A stretch of DNA of 64,000 nt, taken from assembly GCA_900473915.1 (NCBI GenBank), contig UCNG01000011.1:146542-210541 (forward strand). Reading direction: 5' to 3'. The DNA is from Hyphomicrobiales bacterium (GTDB lineage Bacteria > Pseudomonadota > Alphaproteobacteria > Rhizobiales > Rhizobiaceae). The notes under the pieces are model-generated. The model had not been told where the DNA came from. It saw nothing but the letters and a program-made list of their open reading frames with translations, and did not search any database. A program made the translations under genes and the position numbers. Every line of letters starts with the position of its first letter. Within the stretch, counting starts at the first letter, position 1. Of this stretch, positions 22,084 through 63,925 are shown one piece after another.

Positions 22084-22361
22084 GTATGGCACGTAGGATA
22101 GGCCCCAACCCTCCCAGCCTGTCAATAGTTCCTATCCGACAAAACGGGAGAAGCCCAATCGATTAAAACTGCAAGTAGAACCAACAGTCTCAAAAACCAT
22201 TGGAAAAGAATGGGTTACCCTTTGAAAGACGGTTATTTACATGGTTCTGATGCAGTGAACTTCAAAGGTGGCAGCGGCCGTAGAAATTCCCTCCTCTCCT
22301 ACTGGACAAGCCATCGACAAGGGCATAAGTTCGCGCCGCTCGCATAATAGTGTGCGGGTTT

Positions 22362-22515
22362 GTTCTCGGGGCGGGGTGAAACTCCCCACCGGCGGTATGA
22401 AGCAAAAGCTTTAAGCCCGCGAGCGCCTGATAGGGGTCGATTCGGCTTCAATTCAGGGTCAGCAGATCCGGTGAAATGCCGGAGCCGACGGTTAAAGTCC
22501 GGATGGAAGAGAGCA
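22362..22515 (+). ncRNA. FMN riboswitch (RFN element)
   Basis: The conserved RFN core is unmistakable: CTCGGGGCGGGGTGAAACTC followed by CCCACCGGCGGTA at the 5' side, GCCCGCGAGCGCC in the middle, GATCCGGTGAAATGCCGGAG, then CCGACGGTTAAAGTCCGGAT and a closing AGAGAGCA. It precedes ribH by 80 bases. I see no strong terminator hairpin in that stretch, so FMN probably controls translation initiation or uses another mode of termination. Confidence 0.96.
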
Positions 22516-22594
22516 ATTGATCGCCAGGATTGTGCCATTTCGGTGCCGTCTAGCGTTCTTTTGTGCGCCCTGATTCTAGTTTCGTGAGGAACCT

Positions 22595-23071
22595 ATGAAC
22601 CAGAGCTATCCGAACAAGACTTCCTTCAAAATTGCATTCGTTCAGGCTCGTTGGCACGCCGATATTGTCGATGAAGCCCGCAAGAGTTTTATCGAAGAAC
22701 TGTCAGCAAAGGCCGGCGCCAACGTAGAAGTCGAAATCTTCGATGTTCCCGGGGCGTATGAAATTCCGCTCCACGCCAAAACCTTGGCCAAAACCGGGCA
22801 ATTCGCTGCGATAGTCGGTGCGGCCTTCGTCGTGGATGGTGGTATATACCGGCACGATTTTGTCGCAACTGCGGTTATCAACGGCATGATGCAGGTTGGT
22901 CTTGAGACCGAAGTTCCAATTCTCAGCGTTGTCCTGACACCGCATCATTTCCATGAAAGCAAAGAGCATCGTGATTTCTTCCATGCACATTTCAAGGTGA
23001 AAGGCGTGGAAGCAGCCCATGCCGCTTTGCAGATTGTCGGCGAACGCAGCCGCATTAACGCGCTCGTATAA
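22595..23071 (+). CDS. ribH: 6,7-dimethyl-8-ribityllumazine synthase, RibH2 type
   Basis: This 158-residue enzyme condenses 5-amino-6-ribitylaminouracil with 3,4-dihydroxybutanone phosphate, the penultimate step of riboflavin synthesis. FVQARWHADIVDEARKSF, FDVPGAYEIPLHAKTLA, GGIYRHDFVATAVINGMMQV and the late HHFHES stretch identify it as the Brucella RibH2 isoform. RibH2 is known to be decameric and strongly immunogenic in Brucella. It differs from the remembered Brucella sequence at a number of positions, consistent with Ochrobactrum. It is alone under the FMN riboswitch. The ribosome site is GTGAGGAACCT before the ATG. Confidence 0.96.
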   Translation: MNQSYPNKTSFKIAFVQARWHADIVDEARKSFIEELSAKAGANVEVEIFDVPGAYEIPLHAKTLAKTGQFAAIVGAAFVVDGGIYRHDFVATAVINGMMQVGLETEVPILSVVLTPHHFHESKEHRDFFHAHFKVKGVEAAHAALQIVGERSRINALV

Positions 23072-40910: not shown

Positions 40911-41915
40911 TTATCCGAGAACTTCCGCAACTTTGACCGTGCGGCCTTCTTTGATCGAGCGAAGAGCGGCCTCAGCGAGAGCCAAAGCCTGCAGTCCATC
41001 CTCTGCTGAAGGATGGGGCGCTTTTCCGGTATCAAGCGCATCAATAAACGAGGCAATCTCCGCAGCATATGCAGCCGTATAGCGCGTCATGAAAAAATCG
41101 TGCAGCGGCGGGCGGTTATAGCCATCTCTGGAAGCTATTTCTATCGAAACCGGGCGCTGGTTTTCCGCCGAAACAGCGCCAAGCGATCCATGGACCTCAA
41201 TGCGTTGGTCGTAGCCATAGGAAGCACGTCGCGAATTGGAAATAACGCACTGTCGACCCGAAGCGGTCGTCAAGATGACGCTCGCACTATCGAAATCGCC
41301 TAGCTCTCCGATTTTGGGATCGACAAGGACCGACGCCGACGCAGATACGCTCTCTATTTCCTCCCCAAGCAGAAAACGCGCCATATCGAAATCGTGGATC
41401 GTCATGTCGCGAAAAATGCCACCCGATACCTTGATATATTCGGCAGGCGGAGCAGCGGGATCGCGGCTGGTGATCGTTACCATTTCGACGTTGCCGATAC
41501 GTCCGTCTTCAATGGTTTTGCGTACTGCTGCAAAATGCGGATCGAAACGGCGATTGAAACCAAGCATCACCTTACCGCCGGTTTCGCGAATGACGGCGAG
41601 GCAGGCTCGTACACGTGCAATATCAAGATCGATCGGTTTCTCACAGAAAACGGCCTTGCCGGCGCGCGAAAACCGTTCGATAAGATCGGCGTGGGTATTG
41701 GTCGGCGTGCAAATCAGCACTGCGTCGATGTCGTCGGATTTCTCGATCAGGTCGATGGTGCGAACATCCGCACCGGCAGAATCGGCGATTGCCCTCGCCG
41801 CCGCCTCGTTGGCGTCCGCAACGGCGACCAGTTGAGCCCGCTTGTCCGCGGCGATTGCGCCGGCATGAACCTTGCCAATACGGCCCGCACCAAGCAGTGC
41901 CAGACGTGTCACCAT
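40911..41915 (-). CDS. iolG: Inositol 2-dehydrogenase
   Basis: This enzyme of about 334 residues starts at the ATG at 41915 (GAGG upstream) and oxidises myo-inositol to 2-keto-myo-inositol with NAD. The Rossmann motif is ALLGAGRIGKVHAGAIA at residues 5-21. The GFO/IDH signature EKPIDLDIARVRAC lies near 96, NRRFDPHFAAVR near 122, and GGIFRDMTIHDFDMARFLLGE near 165 contains the catalytic Asp/His pair. It is divergent from iolR, separated by operator-like repeats. It supplies the substrate of IolE. Confidence 0.93.
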   Translation of the reverse strand: MVTRLALLGAGRIGKVHAGAIAADKRAQLVAVADANEAAARAIADSAGADVRTIDLIEKSDDIDAVLICTPTNTHADLIERFSRAGKAVFCEKPIDLDIARVRACLAVIRETGGKVMLGFNRRFDPHFAAVRKTIEDGRIGNVEMVTITSRDPAAPPAEYIKVSGGIFRDMTIHDFDMARFLLGEEIESVSASASVLVDPKIGELGDFDSASVILTTASGRQCVISNSRRASYGYDQRIEVHGSLGAVSAENQRPVSIEIASRDGYNRPPLHDFFMTRYTAAYAAEIASFIDALDTGKAPHPSAEDGLQALALAEAALRSIKEGRTVKVAEVLG

Positions 41916-41965
41916 TGCCTCATCCTCCCAGGAAACGGCCATCTTCAGTCCACTGAAGATATGCT

Positions 41966-41983
41966 ATAGAATATTTATTCTAT
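41966..41983. promoter_or_regulatory. Inverted repeat in iolG-iolR gap, probable IolR site
   Basis: ATAGAATA (41966-41973) and TATTCTAT (41976-41983) are perfect 8-bp inverted repeats with a 2-bp centre. ATAGAATA recurs at 42905-42912 before iolC, which suggests shared control by the RpiR-type regulator. Confidence 0.55.
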
Positions 41984-42036
41984 TTTGCTAGAATGTGACA
42001 TAAAGATTGTCAAGAGACCATATTGAAAGGCCAAGG

Positions 42037-42870
42037 ATGGATTCCCCTACACCATCATCAAACAGCGTTCCTACGAATATCAAGGAATTCGAGGCGAAAC
42101 TGCTGGAGGTTTCCGACCGGTTGCCAAAGAGACTGAAACAGTGTGCCGATTTTGTTGCTGCCAATCAGGATCGTATTGCTGTGTCAACCGTTGCTGAGAT
42201 GGCCGAGGGCGCAGGCGTGCAGAGTTCCGCCTTCATGCGCTTCTGCCAGATCATGGGCTTCTCCGGTTTTTCGGAAATGCAGAAGCTGTTCCGGGAATCC
42301 TATGCGGGCGGCTGGCCTGATTATTCGACAAGACTGCAGCATTTGCGAGAAACAGCAACAGGCAGCGCTCCTGCCCTCCTCGCCGAATTTGCCGAGGCCG
42401 GGCGCACCTCCCTTGAAGGTTTGCTCAAAACCATTGATCCGCAAGCCCTCGAAAAGGCCGTTCAGCTTCTGGCCAGTGCGCAGACAATCCACATTGTCGG
42501 CATCCGCCGCGCATTTCCCGTCGCAAGCTATCTGGCTTACGCTCTGGAGAAAATGCAAGTACCCGCAATGCTGCACAGTGCCGTCGGCAAACTGGAAAAC
42601 CTTCATGCTATCCGCGAAGGTGACGTGCTTCTGGCCATCACCTTTTCCCCATACTCGCCCGAAACTGTCGCCATGGCCGAAGCAGTCGCCGCGCGGGGTA
42701 TCGATGTCGTCGGCATCACCGACACATTTGTGAGCCCCTTGAGTAAATTCGCCAAGCAGACTTTGTTGGTTTCAGAGGTGGATTTCGGAGCATTCCGCTC
42801 ACTCTCCGCGACGCTCTGTCTGGCCATAGCATTGGCCGTTGCTGTGGGCACAGCACGCCAAAGCGACTGA
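42037..42870 (+). CDS. iolR: RpiR/MurR-family regulator of inositol catabolism (IolR)
   Basis: This 277-residue protein has an N-terminal RpiR helix-turn-helix (LPKRLKQCADFVAANQDRIAVSTVAEMAEG, then QSSAFMRFCQIMGFSGFSEMQ, about residues 28-90) and a C-terminal SIS domain (residues 120-270) that binds phosphosugars (IHIVGIRRAFPVASYLAYAL). In rhizobia IolR represses iol genes and is released by a pathway intermediate. The ATG at 42037 is chosen over a TTG at 42007. Operator-like repeats flank the gene on both sides. Confidence 0.92.
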   Translation: MDSPTPSSNSVPTNIKEFEAKLLEVSDRLPKRLKQCADFVAANQDRIAVSTVAEMAEGAGVQSSAFMRFCQIMGFSGFSEMQKLFRESYAGGWPDYSTRLQHLRETATGSAPALLAEFAEAGRTSLEGLLKTIDPQALEKAVQLLASAQTIHIVGIRRAFPVASYLAYALEKMQVPAMLHSAVGKLENLHAIREGDVLLAITFSPYSPETVAMAEAVAARGIDVVGITDTFVSPLSKFAKQTLLVSEVDFGAFRSLSATLCLAIALAVAVGTARQSD

Positions 42871-42884
42871 TCCCTCTCGCACAC

Positions 42885-42941
42885 TATTCCATTTTTTGGT
42901 TGAAATAGAATAATAAATCCATTTTAATCGAAAATGGAATA
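42885..42941. promoter_or_regulatory. Repeat cluster upstream of iolC (probable IolR operators)
   Basis: TATTCCATTTT (42885-42895) is perfectly inverted as AAAATGGAATA (42931-42941). A third copy, TCCATTTT (42918-42925), forms a tighter dyad with AAAATGGA (42931-42938). The ATAGAATA half-site also lies between them. The spacing would allow looping or cooperative repressor binding over the iolC promoter. Confidence 0.55.
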
Positions 42942-43002
42942 ACTGCATGATGGCGCATGAATCAAGCGCGGTCATGCAGCAATAAGAAAATAGCGAGGGA
43001 GG

Positions 43003-44910
43003 ATGGCAGTGAAGCGGCTCGACTTGATCACCATTGGGCGATCTTCGGTTGACCTGTACGGCGCACAGGTTGGCGGCCTTCTGGAAGACATGGCATCCTT
43101 CAACAAGTATGTGGGCGGCTCCCCCACCAATATCGCCACCGGGACCGCGCGGCTTGGCCTCAAATCGGCTTTGATCACCCGCGTCGGCGATGAGCATATG
43201 GGGCGTTTTCTGCTGCGCGAACTGGAACGCGAAGGCGTGGACACGCGTGGCATCGTCACCGATCCCGAACGCCTGACCGCCCTCGTCATTCTCGGCATTC
43301 GCGACCAGCAGCATTTTCCGCTGATCTTCTATCGGGAAAATTGTGCCGACATGGCTTTGTGCGAGGGTGATATCGATCCGGCCTTCATCGCCGAAGCTGG
43401 CTGCGTGTTGGCTACCGGCACACACCTGTCCCATCCAAAGACGGAAGCGGCTGTTTTGAAGGCAATTCGTCTTGCCCGTGAAAATGGAAGCCGGACAGCA
43501 CTCGACATAGATTATCGCCCGAATCTCTGGGGGCTTTCCGGCCATGGTGACGGTGAAAACCGCTTTATCGAATCTGCGGCCGTTACTGCGAAACTGCAAT
43601 CGACGCTTCACCTGTTTGATCTCGTTGTCGGAACGGAAGAGGAGTTCCATATTGCTGGCGGCTCGACTGATACGTTGCAGGCGCTTAAAGCCGTGCGCGA
43701 CGTGACGAATGCCGCGTTGGTTTGTAAACGCGGGCCCATGGGGGCTGTAGTTTTCGAAGGGCCAATTCCCGACAGCCTCGACGAAGGGCAGAGCGGCGAA
43801 GGTTTCCCGATCGATGTTTTCAACGTGCTTGGCGCAGGCGACGGGTTCATGTCCGGGCTTTTGCGAGGCTGGCTGAAGGGTGAAGACTGGCCTACGAGCC
43901 TCAAATTTGCCAATGCCTGCGGAGCTTTCGCAGTCTCGCGGCATGGATGTACGCCAGCCTATCCGAGTTGGGAAGAACTTCAGTATTTCTTCCGCACCGG
44001 CATCCGCAACAAGGCTTTACGCAAGGACGCCGCTTTGGAGCAAATCCATTGGTCTACAAACCGCAACGGTCATTGGCCGCATATGCGCGTCTTTGCGTTC
44101 GACCACCGCATCCAGCTGGAAGAAATAGCCGCCGAGGCGGGCGTTTCGCTAGAAAAGATCGGCGAGTTCAAACAGCTCTGCCTGAATGCCGCATTACGGG
44201 TGGCAAATGGCGCTGACGGCTATGGCATATTGTGTGACGGGCGACTGGGGCGAGATGCCCTGTACCGGGCCGCGGGCACAGGCTTGTGGATCGGACGGCC
44301 CACCGAATGGCCTGGTTCGCGTCCACTCAAGCTGGAACCCGAACTCGGGCCGGACTGTGGCGGACTGGTCGAGTGGCCCGTCGAGAATGTCGTAAAATTG
44401 CTATGCTTCTACCATCCGGACGACACTGCCGAGTTCAAGGCAAAACAGGAAGAAACTGTTTCACGCCTTTTCACAGCTGCTCGGCGCAACCGACTGGAAT
44501 TCTTGTTGGAAATCATCCCGTCCAAAGCGGGGCCAATCGACGATAATACCACAGCGCGCGTGATCGAGCGGTTCTACGAGATCGGCGTCTATCCCGACTG
44601 GTGGAAACTCGAACCCATGAAAACCAGAGCAGCCTGGGCCAATGCCTGTGACGCTATCACGCGCAATGATGAGCACACACGCGGCATTGTTGTTTTGGGA
44701 CTGGACGCGCCTGCCGAAGAACTGGAGGCCAGTCTTGCGATTGCTGCCGAATTTGACCTCGTCAAAGGATTCGCGGTGGGACGCACGATCTTCGGCGACG
44801 CTGCACGCAAATGGCTGAACGGCCTGATCAGCGACGAAGAAGCAATCGCCGACATGACCGCGCGCTACCGCAACCTTTGCAACGTCTGGGACAGCGTGCG
44901 TACATATTGA
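43003..44910 (+). CDS. iolC: 5-dehydro-2-deoxygluconokinase fused to DUF2090 aldolase-like domain (IolC)
   Basis: This 635-residue bifunctional protein has residues 1-325 as a PfkB kinase that phosphorylates 5-dehydro-2-deoxygluconate (YVGGSPTNIATGTARLG near the start, and the C-terminal catalytic motif NVLGAGDGFMSGLLRG). Residues 340-635 are a DUF2090 domain (HMRVFAFDHRIQLEEIA..., RRNRLEFLLEIIPSK, YEIGVYPDWWKLEP), a TIM-barrel related to LacD/IolJ-type aldolases. The fusion is usual in rhizobia and Brucellaceae and may replace IolJ. It is the first gene of iolCDEB. Confidence 0.94.
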   Translation: MAVKRLDLITIGRSSVDLYGAQVGGLLEDMASFNKYVGGSPTNIATGTARLGLKSALITRVGDEHMGRFLLRELEREGVDTRGIVTDPERLTALVILGIRDQQHFPLIFYRENCADMALCEGDIDPAFIAEAGCVLATGTHLSHPKTEAAVLKAIRLARENGSRTALDIDYRPNLWGLSGHGDGENRFIESAAVTAKLQSTLHLFDLVVGTEEEFHIAGGSTDTLQALKAVRDVTNAALVCKRGPMGAVVFEGPIPDSLDEGQSGEGFPIDVFNVLGAGDGFMSGLLRGWLKGEDWPTSLKFANACGAFAVSRHGCTPAYPSWEELQYFFRTGIRNKALRKDAALEQIHWSTNRNGHWPHMRVFAFDHRIQLEEIAAEAGVSLEKIGEFKQLCLNAALRVANGADGYGILCDGRLGRDALYRAAGTGLWIGRPTEWPGSRPLKLEPELGPDCGGLVEWPVENVVKLLCFYHPDDTAEFKAKQEETVSRLFTAARRNRLEFLLEIIPSKAGPIDDNTTARVIERFYEIGVYPDWWKLEPMKTRAAWANACDAITRNDEHTRGIVVLGLDAPAEELEASLAIAAEFDLVKGFAVGRTIFGDAARKWLNGLISDEEAIADMTARYRNLCNVWDSVRTY

Positions 44911-44942
44911 AATCGTTCTGCCGGGAGGAAGCTGGAGGAGCT

Positions 44943-46766
44943 ATGAAAACCGTTCGATTGACCGCCGCGCAGGCATTGGTGCGCTATCTCGCAAACCAGA
45001 TGACGCCGGATGGCGAGACTTTTATCGCAGGCGTTTGGGCGATTTTCGGCCACGGCAATGTGGCTGGGCTTGGTGAGGCGCTCCATGGGATTCGCGAAAA
45101 ACTACCCACATGGCGCGGGCATAATGAACAGACCATGGCTCACGCAGCCATTGCCTATACCAAGCAGCTTGGCCGCAAGCGCGCTTGCGCCGTCACCTCC
45201 TCCATCGGCCCCGGCGCAACAAATATGATCACGGCAGCGGCCCTCGCCCATGTAAACCGCCTGCCAGTTCTCCTCATCCCCGGCGATGTCTTTGCCAATC
45301 GTGGGCCTGATCCCGTCTTGCAGCAGATCGAAGACTTTAACGACGGCACAATGACCGTGAATGACTGTTTTCGTCCGGTCAGCCGCTATTTCGACAGGAT
45401 CACCCGGCCCGAACAACTTCTCACCGCCCTGCCTCGCGCCTTCCGCACGATGACCGATCCCGCTGATTGCGGACCGGTCACGCTTGCCTTTTGTCAGGAT
45501 GTGCAGACAGAAGCCTATGACTGGCCGGAAGAGTTCTTTGAACCAAAAGTCTGGCATTGGCGCCGCCCACCGCCGGATGAAAATGAACTGCATACCGCAG
45601 CGGCGGCAATCAAGGCAGCGCTCAAGCCCGTTATCGTTGCAGGCGGTGGGGTTCATTACTCCGGTGCTCACGAGGCGTTGCGCAATTTTGCCGAAGCGCA
45701 CGGCATTCCGGTGATCGAAACGCAGGCGGGTAAGTCGGCCCTGCCTTGGGATCATCCGCTCAACTTCGGCCCGGTTGGCGTGACCGGAGCGGATAGCGCC
45801 AATGCTATCGCGGCAGAAGCTGATCTCGTGATCGGCGTTGGCACCCGCTTTCAGGACTTCACCACCGGATCCTGGGCGCTGTTCAAGCATCCGGGACGCA
45901 AGCTGCTTTCACTCAATGTCCAGCCCTACGACAGCACCAAACACAATTCACTGCCATTGGTTGCCGATGCAAAGATTGGCCTCGAAGCTCTTTCAAAAGC
46001 GATCGGCAGCTACAAACGCCAGCCGGCGGATGCCGCTTTGAAAGAGAAATGGTTTGCGTCGGCAGACCGGTTTACTGCTGCCCCCAGCGATGGCAACGCG
46101 CTTGCAACCGATATGCAGGTGATCGGCGCGGTGCAGCGTCAGGCACGACAGAACACCGTCGTCATGTGCGCGGCTGGCACAATGCCCGGAGAATTGCATC
46201 AACTCTGGAAGGCCGGTCGCCCCATGTCCTATCACATGGAATACGGCTTTTCCTGCATGGGCTACGAAATCGCTGGCGGCCTTGGCATCAAGATGGCCGA
46301 ACCGGATCGGGACGTCATCGTGATGGTCGGCGACGGATCTTACATGATGGCCAATTCCGAACTCGCCACCGCCGTCATGATGGGACAGAAGATTACGGTC
46401 GTTATTACCGACAATCGCGGTTTCGGCTGCATCAACCGGCTGCAAATGGCGACCGGCGGCGCTGAGTTCAACAATCTGCTCGACCATTCGAGCCATGTGA
46501 ACCCATCTCACATCGATTTCGCGGCCCACGCCGGGGCCATGGGTGCAGATACGAAGAAAGTAGCTTCCATCCGCGAGCTTGAAGAAGCTTTGGCGGAAAC
46601 CCGCAACAGTGTGCGCACCACCGTCATCATTATCGATACCGACCCCTATTCAACGCCAGAAACGGGTGGATGGTGGTGGGATGTCGCGGTGCCGGAAGTC
46701 TCCGAGCGCGAGCAGGTGCGCGCCGCGCGCAAAAATTATGAAGCCAAGCTCAAAGAAAGAAACTGA
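44943..46766 (+). CDS. iolD: 3D-(3,5/4)-trihydroxycyclohexane-1,2-dione hydrolase
   Basis: This 607-residue ThDP-dependent enzyme opens the ring of the IolE product. The ATG at 44943 has GGAGGAG 2 bases upstream. ThDP-family motifs are present: the N-terminal glutamate region with HNEQTMAHAAIAYTKQL, the central RFQDFTTGSWALF, and the pyrophosphate motif VGDGSYMMANSELATAVMMG with the following DNRGFGCINR near residues 460-500. It begins 32 bp after iolC and ends 3 bp before iolE. Confidence 0.96.
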   Translation: MKTVRLTAAQALVRYLANQMTPDGETFIAGVWAIFGHGNVAGLGEALHGIREKLPTWRGHNEQTMAHAAIAYTKQLGRKRACAVTSSIGPGATNMITAAALAHVNRLPVLLIPGDVFANRGPDPVLQQIEDFNDGTMTVNDCFRPVSRYFDRITRPEQLLTALPRAFRTMTDPADCGPVTLAFCQDVQTEAYDWPEEFFEPKVWHWRRPPPDENELHTAAAAIKAALKPVIVAGGGVHYSGAHEALRNFAEAHGIPVIETQAGKSALPWDHPLNFGPVGVTGADSANAIAAEADLVIGVGTRFQDFTTGSWALFKHPGRKLLSLNVQPYDSTKHNSLPLVADAKIGLEALSKAIGSYKRQPADAALKEKWFASADRFTAAPSDGNALATDMQVIGAVQRQARQNTVVMCAAGTMPGELHQLWKAGRPMSYHMEYGFSCMGYEIAGGLGIKMAEPDRDVIVMVGDGSYMMANSELATAVMMGQKITVVITDNRGFGCINRLQMATGGAEFNNLLDHSSHVNPSHIDFAAHAGAMGADTKKVASIRELEEALAETRNSVRTTVIIIDTDPYSTPETGGWWWDVAVPEVSEREQVRAARKNYEAKLKERN

Positions 46767-46769
46767 CCG

Positions 46770-47672
46770 ATGATCCTCTATGGCACCAATCCTATTGCCT
46801 GGTCGAACGACGATGATCGCAGCCTCGGCGCGCATATCACGCTGGATCAATGTCTCGATGAAACCGCCGAAATCGGCTTTGACGGGATCGAAAAAGGTCA
46901 CAAATTTCCGCAGGAACCGTCTGCGCTCAAAGCAGTGCTCGAACCTCGTAATCTTCGTTATGTGTCGGGCTGGCATTCGCTCAACCTGCTGGTGAATTCG
47001 GTGGAAGATGAAAAGAACGCGATACAGCCAGCGCTCGATCTTCTGAAGGCAATGGGCTCGACGGTCATCATCGTTTGCGAAACCTCGAACGCCATTCACG
47101 GCGACAACGACAAGCCGCTATCCGAGCGTCCGGTGCTGGAAGAAGCGCGCTGGGAAGAATTCGGCGCGGGCGTAGAAGCACTCGCTGAATATGCCGCCCA
47201 GCAAGGAATAGCTCTTGTCTATCATCATCACATGGGAACGGTGGTGCAGAGCGAGGATGAGATTGATCTTCTGATGCATCATACGGGACCGCATACAAAG
47301 CTTCTTCTCGATACCGGTCACTGCCTGTTCGGTGGTGGCGACCCGGAACGGGTTGCGAAAAAGCATATGGATCGCGTCGGGCATATCCATGCCAAGAACG
47401 TTCGTCCGGCGATAGCCGCCGAAGTACGCGACCAAAGCCTGTCGTTTCTGGAAGGTGTCCGTCGCGGTGTCTTTACAGTTCCTGGCGATAAGGAAGGCGG
47501 CGTCGACTTCGTGCCTGTACTGAAAGTTGCCGCTGAAAGTGGCTATCAAGGTTGGCTGGTGATCGAAGCCGAGCAAGATCCAGATGTTCGTAATCCATAT
47601 CAATATCAGTCACTTGGGTTGAAATCGCTGAAATCATTCGCACGCGAAGCAGGACTCGATAAAGGAGACTGA
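46770..47672 (+). CDS. iolE: Inosose dehydratase
   Basis: This 300-residue TIM-barrel enzyme of the xylose-isomerase-like AP-endonuclease-2 family dehydrates 2-keto-myo-inositol. Characteristic stretches: [12 protein letters not shown] at the start, [55 protein letters not shown] and [11 protein letters not shown]. These include the expected metal ligands (Glu, Asp, His, Glu). It starts 3 bp after the iolD stop and 3 bp separate it from iolB. Confidence 0.96.
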
Positions 47673-53305: not shown

Positions 53306-54331
53306 TCAGTTGGCGTGCGCGCCGATCTCCTTGTCCCAGCGCTCAAGCAATTCCTTGCGCTTGGCCGGTTCGCCATAGGTCTTGAAGTCATAATCGATCA
53401 GCTTGATATCTTCGAAGCGCGGGGATTCCTTTGGAACCTCGGCCGATTTGTTCGACGGCAACTGGAAGGACTTCGCATCCTTCATATGCGACTGCACTTC
53501 TGCTGTCAGCGCCCAGTCGTACCACTTCTTGGCATTTTCGAGATTCTTGGCGCCCTTGACGATCGACATGGAGCCGATCTCGTAACCCGTGCCTTCACAT
53601 GGAGCAACCGACTTGACCGGGAAGCCTTCCGCCGTCATCGACACCGCATCATGCATAAAGACGATCCCGATCCCGGTTTCGCCGCGCGCGGCGGATTTGA
53701 CCGGAGCCGAGCCGGATTTGGTGTATTGCGATACATTCTCGTTGAGCTTCTTCAGATATTCATAGGCCTTATCTTCGCCCATGATCTGCACGAGCGTAGC
53801 CAGCGCCGTGTAGGCCGTGCCCGAAGAGTTCGGGTTGGCCATCTGGATTTCGCCCTTATAGGAAGGGTCCAGAAGATCGGCCCAGCATTTCGGCTCTTTC
53901 AGGTTTTTCTTGGCCAGAATTTCAGTATTGTAACCCCAACCAAGCGCACCGGCATAAACACCAACCGTGCGGAATCCGGAGCTTTCGGCCTGCTTCTTGG
54001 CCCAATCATTCAACTGGTCGAGCATGGGCGATTTATATTCGAGCGTAAGTCCCTCAGCCGCAGCCTGTAGATGTGGATCGCCGGTGCCAGCCCACCAGAT
54101 ATCCGTCTTTGGATTACGCGCTTCGGCCCTTACCTTGGCATAAGTTTCGCCAGAAGAAAGCCGCACCATGTTGACCTTGATGCCGGTATCCTTCTCGAAC
54201 ATGTTCTTCATCTGCTCGCAGATAACCACATCCGCAGAACAAATGAGATTGAGATTGCCTGCGGCCTGCGCAGAAAAAGCAAATGAAGATACGCCAGCGG
54301 ACAGCGCCGCAACCAGAAATGCCGAACGCAT
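53306..54331 (-). CDS. AfuA-like periplasmic binding protein (probably phosphorylated-sugar, not ferric)
   Basis: From the ATG at 54331 (GGGAGG 6 bases upstream) the protein has 341 residues with a signal peptide ending AQAA. The fold resembles ferric-binding proteins, but the iron-coordinating double tyrosine is absent. Instead it has VRLSSGETYAKVRAEARNPK, DIWWAGTGDPHLQAA and GIGIVFMHDAVSMTAEGF, where the His-Asp pair and a later Glu (CEGTGYEIGS) match the sugar-phosphate-contact residues I remember for AfuA of Actinobacillus. The ligand is therefore more likely a hexose phosphate than iron. Confidence 0.85.
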   Translation of the reverse strand: MRSAFLVAALSAGVSSFAFSAQAAGNLNLICSADVVICEQMKNMFEKDTGIKVNMVRLSSGETYAKVRAEARNPKTDIWWAGTGDPHLQAAAEGLTLEYKSPMLDQLNDWAKKQAESSGFRTVGVYAGALGWGYNTEILAKKNLKEPKCWADLLDPSYKGEIQMANPNSSGTAYTALATLVQIMGEDKAYEYLKKLNENVSQYTKSGSAPVKSAARGETGIGIVFMHDAVSMTAEGFPVKSVAPCEGTGYEIGSMSIVKGAKNLENAKKWYDWALTAEVQSHMKDAKSFQLPSNKSAEVPKESPRFEDIKLIDYDFKTYGEPAKRKELLERWDKEIGAHAN

Positions 54332-59043: not shown

Positions 59044-59871
59044 TTAGTTCAAGCCGAGTGTACCGCGCAGAGTGGATAAATCCTCTGCCAGCGTAGTTAC
59101 AGGACCGGCCAGCGCCTTGCGATCGTCGTCGGAAAGCTTGTCATAGGACTCGTAACCGTCGCCCTTCTTGTACTTGGCGAGAATATCGTCAACCGTTTTG
59201 AAGTTGGCTTCCACCTTCGTCACGAGGTCCGGGTTTTCCTTTTGCAGCAGAGGTTTGAACAGCTCAACGATCTTCTGCGCGCCATCCACATTGGCCTTGA
59301 AATCCCAAAGGTCCGTATGGCTGTAACGATCTTCCTCACCGGAAATTTTGGTGGCGGCTACTTCTTCCAGCAGGGCAGCAGCGCCGCCGACTACCTTTTC
59401 CGGCGGAACGGTAAGGTCTTTTACGCGCTTTTGGAGTTCCAGCACGTCTGCGTAGAGCTTGTCGGCGACCGGAGCGAGCCCTTCGCTTGAATTCTGCGCA
59501 AACAAGCCATACTCGATGCGATGAAATCCGGTGAAATCTTCCGACTTCTCGCCATTTTCATGGTCGTCAGCGCGGCTATCGATCGAAGCGTCGAGATCAG
59601 CGAAGAGTTCGGCGATTGGTTCGATTTTTTCGTAGGAGACACGAGTGGAGGGATAGAGCTCCTTGGCCTTTTCCAGATCGCCTGCCTTGACCGCATCCGT
59701 GAAAGCCTTGGTGTCTTTTACCAGGATATCAAGGTTTTCCTGCACGTAAATCTTATAGTCAGCGATCGGCTGAACAAGATCCAGCGGAGATACTTCGGCC
59801 TTGGCTGCGCCGAAGCTGAGCGAAACTGCGACGGCGCAAGCCGATGCAAGCAATGGCAGACGATACTTCAT
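59044..59871 (-). CDS. efeM: Second imelysin/M75-type iron-uptake lipobinding protein (EfeM-like)
   Basis: From the ATG at 59871 (GAGAGG upstream) the protein has 275 residues: a signal peptide to about residue 26 (AAKA) and one imelysin/peptidase M75 domain with the metal-site motif GFHRIEYGLF. It lacks the cupredoxin domain of EfeO. The C-terminal half resembles that of the EfeO encoded 1.4 kb upstream, suggesting duplication and domain loss. It is the last gene of the operon, 62 bp after efeB. Confidence 0.88.
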   Translation of the reverse strand: MKYRLPLLASACAVAVSLSFGAAKAEVSPLDLVQPIADYKIYVQENLDILVKDTKAFTDAVKAGDLEKAKELYPSTRVSYEKIEPIAELFADLDASIDSRADDHENGEKSEDFTGFHRIEYGLFAQNSSEGLAPVADKLYADVLELQKRVKDLTVPPEKVVGGAAALLEEVAATKISGEEDRYSHTDLWDFKANVDGAQKIVELFKPLLQKENPDLVTKVEANFKTVDDILAKYKKGDGYESYDKLSDDDRKALAGPVTTLAEDLSTLRGTLGLN

Positions 59872-59933
59872 ATTTAGCCTCTCCATGTCGGCGAATTCCG
59901 AGGAATACGCGTTAATAAAATTTGGTCGCGATC

Positions 59934-61241
59934 TCACCCGCGGGCATTTTGCGGACCGCTGGCCTCCAAAAGTGTGCGCGCGTAGTAGTCCTTGTGATCT
60001 TGAACACCCGGCAGCGCGAAGAAATACCCGCCCCCAATGGGTTTCAGATATTCTTCCAGAGGCTCACCGTTGAGCCGGTTCTGAACCGTGATGAAGCCCT
60101 TTTCCAGATCGGCCTGATAGGCGATGAAGAGGAGGCCCATATCAAGTTGGCCCGATTTACTGACGCCGTTGGAATAGTTGAACGGACGACGCAGAATGAG
60201 GTGCTGATCAGCATTTGCATCGCGCGGATTTGCCAGACGAATATGCGAGTCAAGCGGCGTGACCTTGCCGTCGGCATCTTTCGCGTAATCGGGAACGTCG
60301 GTCTCAGTTTTTCCGTCGAATGGCGCTCCGCTATCCTTGCGGCGCCCGAAAATCGCTTCCTGCTCCTGCAGCGGGGTGCGGTCCCAGCGCTCCACGAAAT
60401 TGCGAATGATACGCACGGCCATATAGCTGCCATTGGTCGCCCAATCCGGCTCTGCATTTTGCTTCCCCACCCAGACAATACGGTTCATCAACGCTTCATC
60501 GGAGGAATCCGGGTTGGCGGAGCCATCGCGAAAGCCGAGGAAATTCCGGGCGCTTTCTTTTGCTTTGGGTGAATGCGGAGGCTGTACCGGAACGCTTCCT
60601 TCCTGTTTCCAGCGCACCATCAGAAGATCAGGCATGTTCTTCATGATGTCCCGCAATGCATGGATATTCGTATCCGGCGTATTCGAGCAGAACTGAATTA
60701 CAAGGTCCCCATGGCAGATGTCCTTTTGCAAGGCATCGTTGGGAAAACCTGTCATGCGCTGTAGAAGTTTCGGCTTCAACGGCTTCAAGCCAAAACGATC
60801 ATCGAATAATGACGAGCCGAGCGCAACCGTGACAGTGAGATTATCAGGCGTGACGACCGGGCCGAGAATACCGGAATCCGATGGCGGAAATTTCGCATCC
60901 AGCACCGGCGGCCTTCCGCCCTTCATCAAGAATTCCGCGCGCTCGGTGAGCAGCTTGAACATGCGCTCAAGTTCAGCGCGGTCGCGCGCCAGCACATCGA
61001 AAGAAGCAACGAGACCCGCCGCAGGGCGTGGCGTCACGATGCCCGGCTGATGCTGCCCGTAAAAAGGCTGGCTTTCGTGCAGCTTTTCGCTTTCCGGCGC
61101 ATTGGTTACATTGTCGGAGGAAAGCGCTTGTGCCGACTGTGGAGCAAGCACGCCTGCTACACCAGTTGCTCCGACACCGAGCAGCAATGCGCGGCGTGAA
61201 GGTGAAACAGGATTATCTGTTTTCAAAAATTTCTTGGTCAC
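59934..61241 (-). CDS. efeB: Dye-decolourising heme peroxidase EfeB, Tat-exported
   Basis: This 435-residue DyP-type peroxidase carries a Tat signal (SPSRRALLLGVGATG, residues 13-27). The distal catalytic motif is present as NFLGFRDGSANPDSSD (GxxDG) near residue 240, with the Arg of MAVRIIRNFVERWDR later. In EfeUOB systems it is proposed to oxidise Fe2+ or act on heme. It starts with GTG overlapping the efeO stop (TAGTG), which indicates coupling. Confidence 0.94.
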   Translation of the reverse strand: MTKKFLKTDNPVSPSRRALLLGVGATGVAGVLAPQSAQALSSDNVTNAPESEKLHESQPFYGQHQPGIVTPRPAAGLVASFDVLARDRAELERMFKLLTERAEFLMKGGRPPVLDAKFPPSDSGILGPVVTPDNLTVTVALGSSLFDDRFGLKPLKPKLLQRMTGFPNDALQKDICHGDLVIQFCSNTPDTNIHALRDIMKNMPDLLMVRWKQEGSVPVQPPHSPKAKESARNFLGFRDGSANPDSSDEALMNRIVWVGKQNAEPDWATNGSYMAVRIIRNFVERWDRTPLQEQEAIFGRRKDSGAPFDGKTETDVPDYAKDADGKVTPLDSHIRLANPRDANADQHLILRRPFNYSNGVSKSGQLDMGLLFIAYQADLEKGFITVQNRLNGEPLEEYLKPIGGGYFFALPGVQDHKDYYARTLLEASGPQNARG

Positions 61242-62431
61242 TAATTCACTCCCAATTGATCGCGGAGTTTAGAGAATTGGGCGGCGAGCGAAGCGGCGCC
61301 CTCCTTGATCTTCGCCTTTTCATCAGACGAGAGATTGTCGTAGGCCTTGAAACCATTGCCTTCGGCATTGGCGCTCAAAAGAGCTTTCACCGCAGCCAGT
61401 TCCTTGTCGATGCCTTCAAAAGCCTTCGTATCGACCTTGTCCACAATAGGACGCAACACATTTGCCGTCTTGGCCGCGCCTTCAACGAGCCCGGCGAAAG
61501 CGTACAGATCAGTGTGGGCATAACGGTCTTCGCCGGTATCGCCCGCCGTCGAGGCGAAACGATTAAGCGCCGATGCGGTGCCAGCCAGCATGCGATCCGG
61601 CGAAATACGCAGAGCGCGAATACGCTCCTTCAACGCGCCGGCATCCTGAGCCAGCTTGTCCGCAACCGGGGCCAGATCATCTGCCGATTTCTGCTCGAAC
61701 AGCCCGTATTCGATACGATGCAGGCCACCGAAAGCAGCGTCCTGCTCCCGCTTTTCGAAATAATCCGCGCGCGCATTGATAGCGGTATCGAGATCAGAAA
61801 AGGCCTCCGAAACAGGGGCAATACGTCCATAGGCCTCTCGTGCAGGGCCATAGGCAGATTGTGCTGCATCAAGATTTCCGCTCGCTATTGCTGCGGAAAG
61901 TGCCGAAACCGCCTTCTGGAATTCAGCCACTTCGGTTGCGAGATAGATCTGATATTCAGCCAGCGCCCCGATGAAAGCAGTAAGCGGAAGCTTGCCCTTC
62001 TCCGCTTCGCTGGCGGCGGTCGCAGTTACGGTCAACTTGCCCCGAGGATTGGACAGAAGCCCACAGGTAATCTGGTATTCGCCCGGTGCCAGCTTCGCGG
62101 TGATTGTCTGTTTGAAGCCCGGTGCGATGTTTTCACGTTCTTCAAGAACCATCACTCCGTCAAGAATTTCCCATTCCACGGTGCGATCCGACTTGTTTAC
62201 GATTTCGAACACCGAACGCCCGGCAGGAACGGTCAGCTCATTCGGCTCGCAGCTTTTTGCATTGATTGCGACTTGTACCTTGCCATCCACTTCTGCATGG
62301 CGGGCCTTGTCCGACACGCGAGATGCATAAAAGAACGCAGCGCCCGCAGCAAAAAGCAGCAGTACGGCGAGAGCCAGCCCGATGCGGACCAGGTTACGTG
62401 ACATGGGTTCAGCAGACTTCGAATTCGTCAT
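61241..62431 (-). CDS. efeO: EfeO, cupredoxin plus imelysin/M75 periplasmic protein
   Basis: This 396-residue protein has an N-terminal anchor (about 12-36), a cupredoxin-like domain (about 45-140, with SCEPNELTVPAGRSVFEI and GEYQITCGLLSNPRG), then an M75 domain with the HxxE motif GGLHRIEYGLFEQ. It is proposed to bind and hand iron to the permease. It lies 11 bp after efeU and overlaps efeB. Confidence 0.94.
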   Translation of the reverse strand: MTNSKSAEPMSRNLVRIGLALAVLLLFAAGAAFFYASRVSDKARHAEVDGKVQVAINAKSCEPNELTVPAGRSVFEIVNKSDRTVEWEILDGVMVLEERENIAPGFKQTITAKLAPGEYQITCGLLSNPRGKLTVTATAASEAEKGKLPLTAFIGALAEYQIYLATEVAEFQKAVSALSAAIASGNLDAAQSAYGPAREAYGRIAPVSEAFSDLDTAINARADYFEKREQDAAFGGLHRIEYGLFEQKSADDLAPVADKLAQDAGALKERIRALRISPDRMLAGTASALNRFASTAGDTGEDRYAHTDLYAFAGLVEGAAKTANVLRPIVDKVDTKAFEGIDKELAAVKALLSANAEGNGFKAYDNLSSDEKAKIKEGAASLAAQFSKLRDQLGVN

Positions 62432-62442
62432 GAAAATCTCTT

Positions 62443-63285
62443 TTATTGTGCGCTTGGTCTGGCCTGATTGGCTGTGGCCGGGACACTTGTTGGCATCAGG
62501 AACAGAATGAGCGCCGGAACGAGAAACGCCACATAAGCAACGACTTCACTGACGGTCGGCGTTGCGATGTAACCAAAAATGCCCGCCAGAACCGAGCCAA
62601 GCGTGCTGTCGAGCGGGAGAATGTCGCTCGCATCGAAAACGACTGCCTGGAAGTGGTTCCAAATACCTGCCTCATGCAGCGCCATAACAGAATTGGCGAG
62701 AATGCCCGCCGCGATGATCAGGATAAAGACACCGGTCCAGCGAAAGAAGCGACGGAGGTTCAGTTTCAAACCGCCTTTAAAAATGCCGTAGCCAACCGCC
62801 GCCGCGAGCAACACGCCGAGAAGCGCGCCCATCGGCGCAGCCGGTCCCTCGCTCTGCTGAAAGGCAGCCAGCAGAAAGAAAACGGATTCGAGCCCCTCGC
62901 GGGCCACCGCGAAGAAAACCATTAGAATAAGACCGAGACCTTTATGCGTCGGGGTCTGAAAAGCCGCATCGATGGAGTAGTGCAGCTCCGCCTTGATCGA
63001 TCGTGCCGCCTTGCGCATCCAGAAAACCATTGAGGTCAGCACAAAGACGGCAATCAGGCCAATAATGGCCTCAAACATCTCCTGCGCTTTCTGCGGGAAT
63101 TCCGCACTCAAAAGCTGCAGAATTGCGCCAACCGTCAGCGACATGGCCAGAGCAAGCAGAATGCCGATCCAGACGACAGGCATCCAGGCACTACGGCCTG
63201 TCTGATGAAGATAGCTGGCGATAATGCCGACAATCAGCGCAGCTTCCACGCCTTCGCGGAACATGATGAGAAAAGGTACAAGCAT
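62443..63285 (-). CDS. efeU: Ferrous-iron permease EfeU (FTR1 family)
   Basis: This 280-residue, seven-helix iron permease has the two REGxE iron motifs: FREGVEAALIVGIIASYL at residues 9-27 and VAREGLESVFFLLAAF near 130. Both are intact, so the channel is probably functional, unlike the frameshifted E. coli K-12 gene. It is the first gene of efeU-efeO-efeB-efeM, with an Irr box 146 bp upstream. Confidence 0.95.
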   Translation of the reverse strand: MLVPFLIMFREGVEAALIVGIIASYLHQTGRSAWMPVVWIGILLALAMSLTVGAILQLLSAEFPQKAQEMFEAIIGLIAVFVLTSMVFWMRKAARSIKAELHYSIDAAFQTPTHKGLGLILMVFFAVAREGLESVFFLLAAFQQSEGPAAPMGALLGVLLAAAVGYGIFKGGLKLNLRRFFRWTGVFILIIAAGILANSVMALHEAGIWNHFQAVVFDASDILPLDSTLGSVLAGIFGYIATPTVSEVVAYVAFLVPALILFLMPTSVPATANQARPSAQ

Positions 63286-63780
63286 TCCGACTATCCAAAA
63301 GACAGAGAAATCGGCCTGCCCCTTGGTCGCTTCTCTTTAACCCCGGCGTGAAGCCTTCGTCATTTGGTCATCTTTTATATCCACCCCGTCAGCGCCGCAA
63401 GTTAAATGAAGTTGACCAAAGCAGGAATGTTTTAGAATTATTCTAACCAATTCAGCAGTTTATAAGTGTGCTGCTACTTACCCCCCATGGAAACGATCAT
63501 ATAAATTATTGAAATCGCGACAAAGTATGAACTTCCAACGCGCCCGTGCGTTGCTGGCAGCGCATCGCCGCGAGCTTTGCGAACCAATCAAATTAGAGAA
63601 CGCCGCAATCCTCCACAGCGAGTCGCAAGCACCTGCATTATAACGAAAGATTGTTTCGATCTGGAGTACGCTCGGCCCGTCCGAGTAGTACAAACATTGA
63701 CCAATAAACTGCAAAACACGCCCACATTTCAAAAAGTTTCAGAATTTTCCGAAATGGTCAAAAATTTCGTGTTTCAGGGG
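63286..63780. other. Intergenic region upstream of efeU
   Basis: It holds the Irr box and presumably the efe promoter. I see no convincing gene. The minus-strand frame at 63478-63732 lacks a ribosome site and looks random. Confidence 0.5.
63431..63447. promoter_or_regulatory. Irr box (ICE motif) upstream of efeU
   Basis: TTTAGAA-TTA-TTCTAAC matches the rhizobial ICE consensus TTTAGAA-N3-TTCTAAA at 13 of 14 defined positions. It is 146 bp before the efeU ATG. In Rhizobiales Irr acts at such sites under iron limitation, so the efe operon is likely iron/heme-regulated. Confidence 0.75.
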
Positions 63781-63809
63781 TTGAAGATTGGAGCAAGGTG
63801 ATACATATC
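63781..63809 (+). promoter_or_regulatory. Promoter of the CCTCCTCCC small RNA
   Basis: TTGAAG (63781-63786), a 17-bp spacer and CATATC (63804-63809) precede a hairpin-rich segment ending in a strong terminator. The start point would be near 63816. Confidence 0.5.
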
Positions 63810-63815
63810 ACAGTC

Positions 63816-63925
63816 ACTTACCGCTGTGCCTCCTCCCATTGCGCGCGGTAAGTGTTCCCCTCTGGAGGTTTGCCCAAGTGGCACCTTCATAACTTAGCCG
63901 GACTTCCTAGTCCGGCTCTTTTTTT
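63816..63925 (+). ncRNA. Candidate trans-acting small RNA with CCTCCTCCC loop
   Basis: About 110 bases. A perfect 10-bp stem, CACTTACCGC (63815-63824) with GCGGTAAGTG (63845-63854), displays a 20-base loop containing CCTCCTCCC (anti-Shine-Dalgarno). A second C-rich stretch (TTCCCCTCTGGAGG) follows, then a terminator. The architecture matches alphaproteobacterial CcsR/Cuckoo- or AbcR-type riboregulators. No coding frame covers it. Confidence 0.7.
63896..63925 (+). terminator. Rho-independent terminator of the small RNA
   Basis: AGCCGGACT (63896-63904) pairs perfectly with AGTCCGGCT (63909-63917) around TCCT, followed by C and seven T. No protein gene lies upstream on this strand, so the terminated product must be a non-coding RNA. 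Confidence 0.92.

What the first reader, a model, noticed from the sequence alone, without database searches (positions are those of the whole stretch)
63781..63925. Unannotated small RNA displaying CCTCCTCCC in a loop
Sequence shows a -35/-10 pair with 17-bp spacing, a perfect 10-bp stem whose 20-base loop carries the 9-mer CCTCCTCCC, a second C-rich segment and a strong terminator, with no coding frame. CCUCCUCCC loops define the CcsR/Cuckoo riboregulators of Alphaproteobacteria, which can pair with ribosome sites. Several genes in the window have GGAGG/GAGG ribosome sites (sugar and amino-acid ABC, afuA-like, iolD), so an ABC-transporter regulon is plausible. It lies alone, not behind a DUF1127 gene as many relatives do.
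Basis: partly seen in the sequence, partly recalled or inferred. Interest (0 to 1): 0.75.

Follow-up and report, generated by a model that had tools for sequence, protein, structure and literature searches.

The report
AbcR-type small RNA beside efeU
The marked stretch is a well-formed gene for a small regulatory RNA of the known AbcR family, which in related bacteria shuts off nutrient-uptake genes, so it is an ordinary member of a known kind, although its start signal differs from that of its sister copies.

Summary
In detail: a promoter-like pair, a 10-bp stem, a C-rich loop and a terminator lie at 63781-63925. It is not a CcsR/Cuckoo RNA but an alphaproteobacterial ar15 (AbcR) RNA: Rfam RF02345, 64.6 bits, cut-off 40. 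It has the three-hairpin fold with anti-Shine-Dalgarno motif 1 in the first loop and motif 2 between hairpins 1 and 2. Orthologues in Brucella/Ochrobactrum relatives show compensatory changes in stem 1; 18 of 23 loci keep the efe genes upstream. 34 of 35 genomes of the genus carry two or three family members. By family, it silences transporter and metabolic mRNAs by pairing at ribosome sites; expression and targets were not tested.

The less ordinary part is its promoter. Of 129 distinct family members, 73 of 76 with a VtlR/LsrB-like box (9 of these with one mismatch) lack a TTGAA -35; 51 of 53 without the box have one, 33 of those being this type. This copy is the box-less type and so resembles the RpoH1-driven AbcR2 of Sinorhizobium meliloti. 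A 2022 review calls the regulator of Brucella abcR1 unknown; RpoH is a testable candidate.

The parts
63738..63764 (+). Conserved upstream element; core TTTTCCGAAATGGTCAAAAA at 63745-63764, about 52-71 bases before the inferred start
   Evidence: Column conservation over 35 promoters; core found once per genome, at this gene, in 8 of 8 genomes searched (8 chosen of 23 then held) with up to 2 mismatches; the backwards control gave one match in one genome
63781..63786 (+). -35 element TTGAAG (TTGAA conserved)
   Evidence: TTGAA-N18-CATAT in 35 of 35 copies of this type aligned; a 36th input was missed by the script and read by eye with the same promoter
63804..63809 (+). -10 element CATATC (CATAT conserved)
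   Evidence: CATAT in 35 of 35
63816..63925 (+). AbcR-type (ar15) small RNA gene; 5' end inferred from the -10 position and the Rfam match, 3' end from the T run
   Evidence: RF02345 at 63816-63923, 64.6 bits, E 7.1e-11
63815..63854 (+). Hairpin 1 with an 11-base loop (its outermost base lies one base before the inferred start)
   Evidence: Fold; 4 of 14 pairs with changes on both sides, 100% of cells paired over 20 sequences
63830..63837 (+). aSD1 CUCCUCCC (M1 CUCCCA at 63833-63838)
   Evidence: Sequence; motif definitions from PMC8844928 and PMC5461406; all bases but the first invariant in 20 of 20 aligned orthologues
63855..63862 (+). aSD2 UUCCCCUC (M2 GUUCCC at 63854-63859)
   Evidence: Sequence; same papers; aSD2 unpaired in the fold, invariant in 20 of 20 aligned orthologues; one further orthologue, L177, has a base less there
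63863..63889 (+). Hairpin 2
   Evidence: Fold and alignment
63896..63925 (+). Rho-independent terminator: 9 pairs and T run
   Evidence: helix 3

Best explanation
This is a stand-alone AbcR small RNA gene of a Brucella/Ochrobactrum-lineage bacterium, the box-less of the two types found in its relatives, and most likely the counterpart of B. abortus abcR1. The roughly 110-base RNA starts near 63816 and ends at its own terminator. It exposes two anti-Shine-Dalgarno seeds and, probably with Hfq, pairs with the ribosome sites of mRNAs for substrate-binding proteins and metabolic enzymes, blocking translation and hastening decay. Sequence, predicted fold, conservation and family membership are shown here; expression, Hfq use, targets and identity with abcR1 are inferred from work on relatives. 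[quoted passage not shown]
For: Rfam RF02345 above cut-off. Three-hairpin fold in 20 of 20 orthologues, with 4 pairs changed on both sides (0.9 in shuffles) and 99.8% of 659 cells paired (98.8% in shuffles, at most 44% when slid). Both published seeds in the published places. Family in 23 of 23 genomes and 34 of 35 of the genus (22 genomes are in both), 0 of 14 controls. 18 of 23 loci keep the efe genes on the upstream side; gcvP converges from the other side in the two loci read. B. abortus has abcR1 and abcR2 on different chromosomes, and VtlR controls abcR2 but not abcR1 (PMC5461406 section 4). Promoter split over 129 distinct copies.
Against: No expression data here. No named B. abortus sequence was compared, and two other texts (PMC7143759; PMC8844928) say that Brucella AbcR1 is the VtlR-regulated one, against PMC5461406. 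For RpoH: the alphaproteobacterial RpoD pattern differs mainly in the last -35 base, the -10 CATAT is shared with VtlR-box copies, and two box copies (L002, L019) also have CTTGAA. Further pair types did not exceed shuffles (15 against 15.8), and the structure tested came from the window's own fold. In-window targets were near background.
Confidence: 0.93

Rival explanations
1. A CcsR/CIN1 (Cuckoo) riboregulator, matured from a DUF1127 transcript.
Against: Strong match to ar15 instead; one such loop only; promoter-like pair and terminator of its own; no DUF1127 hit in the two small upstream frames.
Confidence: 0.02
2. An ar14 (NfeR1) relative.
For: NfeR1 hairpins carry the identical 9-mer, and NfeR1 also targets transporter mRNAs (PMC10746234, passages).
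Against: ar14 RNAs have the motif in three hairpins, this RNA in one; ar14 score 17.7 against a cut-off of 58.8.
Confidence: 0.01
3. A decayed, unexpressed copy of AbcR, kept by chance beside a working VtlR-driven copy.
For: Each genome with hits carries at least one more copy, and single deletions in B. abortus do not affect virulence (PMC5461406 section 4).
Against: Stem with compensatory changes and seeds invariant but for one base in 20 aligned orthologues; promoter conserved in 35 of 35; AbcR1 and AbcR2 are seen on northern blots in Brucella (PMC9751625, passages). L120 (first base of seed 1) and L177 (a base lost in seed 2) show some drift.
Confidence: 0.03
4. Same RNA, but read by the housekeeping sigma factor with a lineage-specific activator at the conserved upstream element, not by RpoH.
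For: The element lies about 52-71 bases before the inferred start, where LysR-type activators often bind (recalled); CATAT is shared with many VtlR-box copies.
Against: The element's core occurs only at this gene in 8 of 8 genomes, odd for a regulator with other targets; 18 box-less copies outside this type share TTGAA, and those printed show no such element.
Confidence: 0.4

Closest known systems
AbcR1 of Brucella abortus (ar15, Rfam RF02345)
   Same: Related lineage; the same two seeds, M1 CUCCCA and M2 GUUCCC, in the same places; a second copy elsewhere in the genomes of relatives; per PMC5461406 not the VtlR-driven one (sections 4 and 8).
   Different: No named B. abortus sequence was compared; the window comes from a relative whose best-matching loci are about 83% alike over the efe genes.
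AbcR2 of Sinorhizobium meliloti
   Same: Three hairpins, aSD1 and aSD2, TTGAA -35 without a VtlR/LsrB box; S. meliloti AbcR2 is RpoH1-driven (PMC8844928, passages and section 8).
   Different: In S. meliloti the two genes lie in tandem beside lsrB (PMC3712013 section 5); here the copy stands alone beside efeU. The -10 is CATAT against CCTATAT. The numbering of the two names looks crossed between the lineages.
NfeR1 (ar14)
   Same: CCUCCUCCC anti-Shine-Dalgarno loop, transporter targets (PMC10746234, passages).
   Different: The motif in three hairpins; a different Rfam family, cut-off not reached.
CcsR1-4 / CIN1 (Cuckoo)
   Different: Made together with a DUF1127 protein gene (PMC10253847, passages); none found here.

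Membership tests
ar15 / AbcR (RF02345) | Covariance-model score above the curated cut-off | tested here: met
   64.6 bits against 40, model positions 1-112 of 112
ar15 / AbcR (RF02345) | Three hairpins, the third a Rho-independent terminator | tested here: met
   20 of 20 orthologues fold with three hairpins
ar15 / AbcR (RF02345) | aSD1/M1 in the first loop | tested here: met
   63830-63838; motifs from PMC8844928 and PMC5461406
ar15 / AbcR (RF02345) | aSD2/M2 between hairpins 1 and 2 | tested here: met
   63854-63862
ar15 / AbcR (RF02345) | Hfq-stabilised transcript that represses transporter mRNAs | not testable with these tools
   Known for relatives (PMC3712013 abstract; PMC5461406)
CcsR / CIN1 (Cuckoo) | Co-transcribed small DUF1127 protein gene | tested here: not met
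   No DUF1127 hit at E up to 1 in the two small upstream frames; the next gene is efeU, pointing away
CcsR / CIN1 (Cuckoo) | Match to a Cuckoo RNA model | tested here: inconclusive
   No family so named among the matches; whether Rfam holds one was not checked
ar14 / NfeR1 (RF02344) | Covariance-model score above cut-off | tested here: not met
   17.7 bits against 58.8
ar14 / NfeR1 (RF02344) | CCUCCUCCC in each of three hairpins | tested here: not met
   One occurrence in the whole window
VtlR/LsrB-activated AbcR | GCAT-N3-TG-N3-T box (PMC7486931) at -61 to -49 (PMC8844928) | tested here: not met
   Nearest exact match at 62966-62978, inside efeU

The most novel reading that the evidence does not exclude
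AbcR copies in Brucellaceae and Phyllobacteriaceae-type genomes split into a VtlR/LsrB-box type and a box-less, RpoH-like (TTGAA) type. In the Brucella lineage the second type would be the copy called abcR1, so the missing regulator of Brucella abcR1 would be the heat-shock sigma factor, helped by a promoter element private to this gene, giving transporter silencing a stress-responsive arm.
Probability: 0.35. Interest if true: 0.45.

Novelty: new member of a known kind. Interest (0 to 1): 0.27.

Why it matters
It corrects a family assignment: AbcR, not Cuckoo. It also bears on a point where the papers disagree and a review sees an open question, namely which AbcR copy VtlR drives in Brucella and what drives the other (PMC5461406; PMC9751625; PMC7143759). 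If the promoter split holds, sister RNAs with the same seeds would be wired to two different signals.

Tried and rejected
Searching the window's own genome: none held. A VtlR box near the gene: absent. Other genes sharing the upstream element: none in 8 of 8 genomes at up to 2 mismatches. Targets in the window: near background; the reversed motif 2 seed paired better at starts (-11.0) than the true one (-9.7), the reversed motif 1 seed slightly worse (-11.7 against -12.2), so I make no target claim. The RNA as a small-protein gene: rejected. A LysR gene next to the VtlR-type copy: not among the four neighbours scanned in one relative, L131; a fifth was not scanned. The one genome of 35 without a hit, G031: a DNA search was empty too, and its closest efeU match is cut at a contig end, so a broken assembly is the likelier reason.

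Rows and selections. One search listed 97 distinct copies, missed Phyllobacterium ones for lack of a T run, and labelled class 1 by the promoter itself, so I rely. The 36 inputs were the window, 23 loci from the pattern scan and 12 loci that I picked as the lower-scoring or non-sister hit; L113 was missed (one-base deletion) and read by eye as L177. One search left out copies near locus ends or without a T run; of the remaining 131, 2 without CTCCCA/CTCCCT were dropped. Its 129 copies are related, one-mismatch boxes can be chance, and 33 of the 51 box-less TTGAA copies are of the window's type, 18 not. Exceptions: L002 and L019 (box and CTTGAA), L122 (this type, box match out of place), L095 and L156 (neither). 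Of 16 outgroup regions fetched, 14 show TTGAA (11 CTTGAA), L178 does not and L175 was not recovered; -10 spacing was not counted there. Some bodies were cut short by the script and used for listing only.

Full report
What is there. The stretch 63781-63925 holds a promoter-like pair (TTGAAG, 17 bases, CATATC), a 10-bp stem with CCTCCTCCC in its loop, a second C-rich segment and a strong terminator. The stretch folds far better than shuffles (z -5.4, none of 200 as good). The 9-mer alone could be chance (0.36 expected).

What it is. An Rfam scan of the whole window gives two matches above the curated cut-offs: an FMN riboswitch and RF02345 (ar15) at 63816-63923, 64.6 bits against 40. ar15 is the AbcR family; S. 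meliloti AbcR1/2 are its founding members (PMC8844928, passage). Both published seeds are present: aSD1 CUCCUCCC in the first loop and aSD2 UUCCCCUC between hairpins 1 and 2 (PMC8844928, passages and section 8), overlapping M1 CUCCCA and M2 GUUCCC of B. abortus (PMC5461406 section 8). The A/U-rich stretch before the terminator, described as a preferred Hfq site in this family (PMC3712013 section 5), corresponds to CTTCATAACTTA here.

Conservation. An exact-pattern scan of the genome collection returned 64 loci. The best matches to the window belong to Brucella, Ochrobactrum and unclassified Rhizobiales records, at best about 83% alike over the efe genes. Of 23 such loci, 18 keep the efe genes on the upstream side of the RNA, some with extra DNA between; four show only the RNA and its promoter and one (L016) a different window gene (gene families). 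In the two loci read on the other side, gcvP converges on the RNA. Family members occur in 23 of 23 genomes and 34 of 35 genomes of the genus (22 genomes are in both): two in 28, three in 6, none in 1, and none in 14 controls. The miss, G031, has its closest efeU match cut at a contig end. Over 20 distinct orthologues, 99.8% of 659 cells pair (98.8% in shuffles), 4 pairs of stem 1 changed on both sides (0.9 in shuffles), and sliding the partners drops pairing to 44% or less; the count of further pair types did not exceed shuffles (15 against 15.8), and the structure came from the window's own fold, which favours it in the sliding control.

How it works. In relatives, AbcR RNAs pair through these seeds with ribosome sites or coding parts of transporter and metabolic mRNAs, block translation and lead to mRNA decay (PMC5461406 sections 4, 8 and part of 12; PMC8844928 section 8). 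I take the same mechanism for this RNA by family membership; nothing here shows its expression or targets. A duplex test at 47 predicted gene starts of the window was near background: -12.2 at starts against -12.4 inside genes for motif 1, -9.7 against -9.0 for motif 2, with reversed seeds at -11.7 and -11.0. The four lowest energies were at 43003 (iolC-like), 53306-54331 (afuA-like binding protein), 40911-41915 (iolG-like) and 44943 (iolD-like); only one of these is an ABC-transporter protein (families; gene names inferred).

The promoter. PMC5461406 (section 4) states that VtlR controls abcR2 but not abcR1 in B. abortus, and a 2022 review that the regulator of abcR1 is unknown (PMC9751625, passages). 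Two other texts word it as AbcR1 being VtlR-regulated in Brucella (PMC8844928; PMC7143759, passages). The window's copy lacks the GCAT-N3-TG-N3-T box, while most sister copies carry it at a nearly fixed place, a few with one mismatch. All 35 aligned copies of the window's type have TTGAA-N18-CATAT. Among 129 distinct copies, 67 have the box exactly and 9 with one mismatch; 73 of these 76 lack TTGAA, and 51 of the 53 without the box have it: 33 of the window's type and 18 others. Most second copies of the outgroup genomes read also carry CTTGAA without a box: 14 of 15 have TTGAA, 11 of them CTTGAA. In S. meliloti the box-less copy, AbcR2, is driven by RpoH1 (CTTGAA-N16-CCTATAT; PMC8844928), and PMC7143759 notes RpoH motifs in the abcR2 promoter. 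Brucella melitensis has RpoH1 and RpoH2 (PMC3747064, passages). Hence the inference that the window's copy is the RpoH-type sister. Against it: CATAT occurs in both types, RpoD's consensus differs mainly in the last -35 base, and two box copies have CTTGAA too.

A conserved element lies upstream of the -35 (63738-63764, core TTTTCCGAAATGGTCAAAAA at 63745-63764). With up to two mismatches the core occurs once per genome, at this gene, in 8 of 8 genomes searched; the backwards control gave one match in one genome. No known factor was assigned.

Prior print. Searches 'AbcR1 AbcR2 VtlR', 'ar15 AbcR1 Alphaproteobacteri', 'abcR1 promoter Brucella rpoH', 'AbcR inositol sRNA' and 'Ochrobactrum AbcR', and the passages read in the three papers, showed no statement of RpoH control of Brucella abcR1. 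Supplements could not be opened, so the promoter alignment of PMC8844928 may already include Brucella.

Noticed in passing
window 63431-63446: A near-palindrome TTTAGAATTATTCTAA upstream of efeU, 1 found and none in 100 shuffles; it resembles the ICE motif of the iron regulator Irr (recalled), fitting an iron-uptake operon.
   Followed up: partly
window 22358-22518: FMN riboswitch (RF00050, 119 bits) upstream of a predicted gene at 22595.
   Followed up: no
L065, L066, L067 (same places as L018, L048, L003): A third, higher-scoring AbcR copy (89.5-95.1 bits) in 3 of 35 genus genomes. The copies in two different species (L066, L067) are identical over the stretch printed and lie beside an M41-type AAA protease gene in L048 and L003, which suggests horizontal transfer.
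   Followed up: partly
L091, L095, L098: Three further third copies, divergent in loop or hairpin 2, in G019, G028 and G032.
   Followed up: no
L177 (same place as L113): One orthologue has a base less in the second seed region (GTTCCCTCTGG for GTTCCCCTCTGG).
   Followed up: no
window 59044-63285, minus strand: An efeU-efeO-efeB iron-uptake set with an extra imelysin-family gene at 59044-59871.
   Followed up: partly
window 40911-47672: Genes that look like inositol catabolism (iolG-, iolC-, iolD- and iolE-like by Pfam); three of their starts gave some of the strongest duplexes with the AbcR loop.
   Followed up: partly
PMC7143759 and PMC8844928 against PMC5461406 (no window position): The texts disagree on whether VtlR drives abcR1 or abcR2 in Brucella.
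   Followed up: partly
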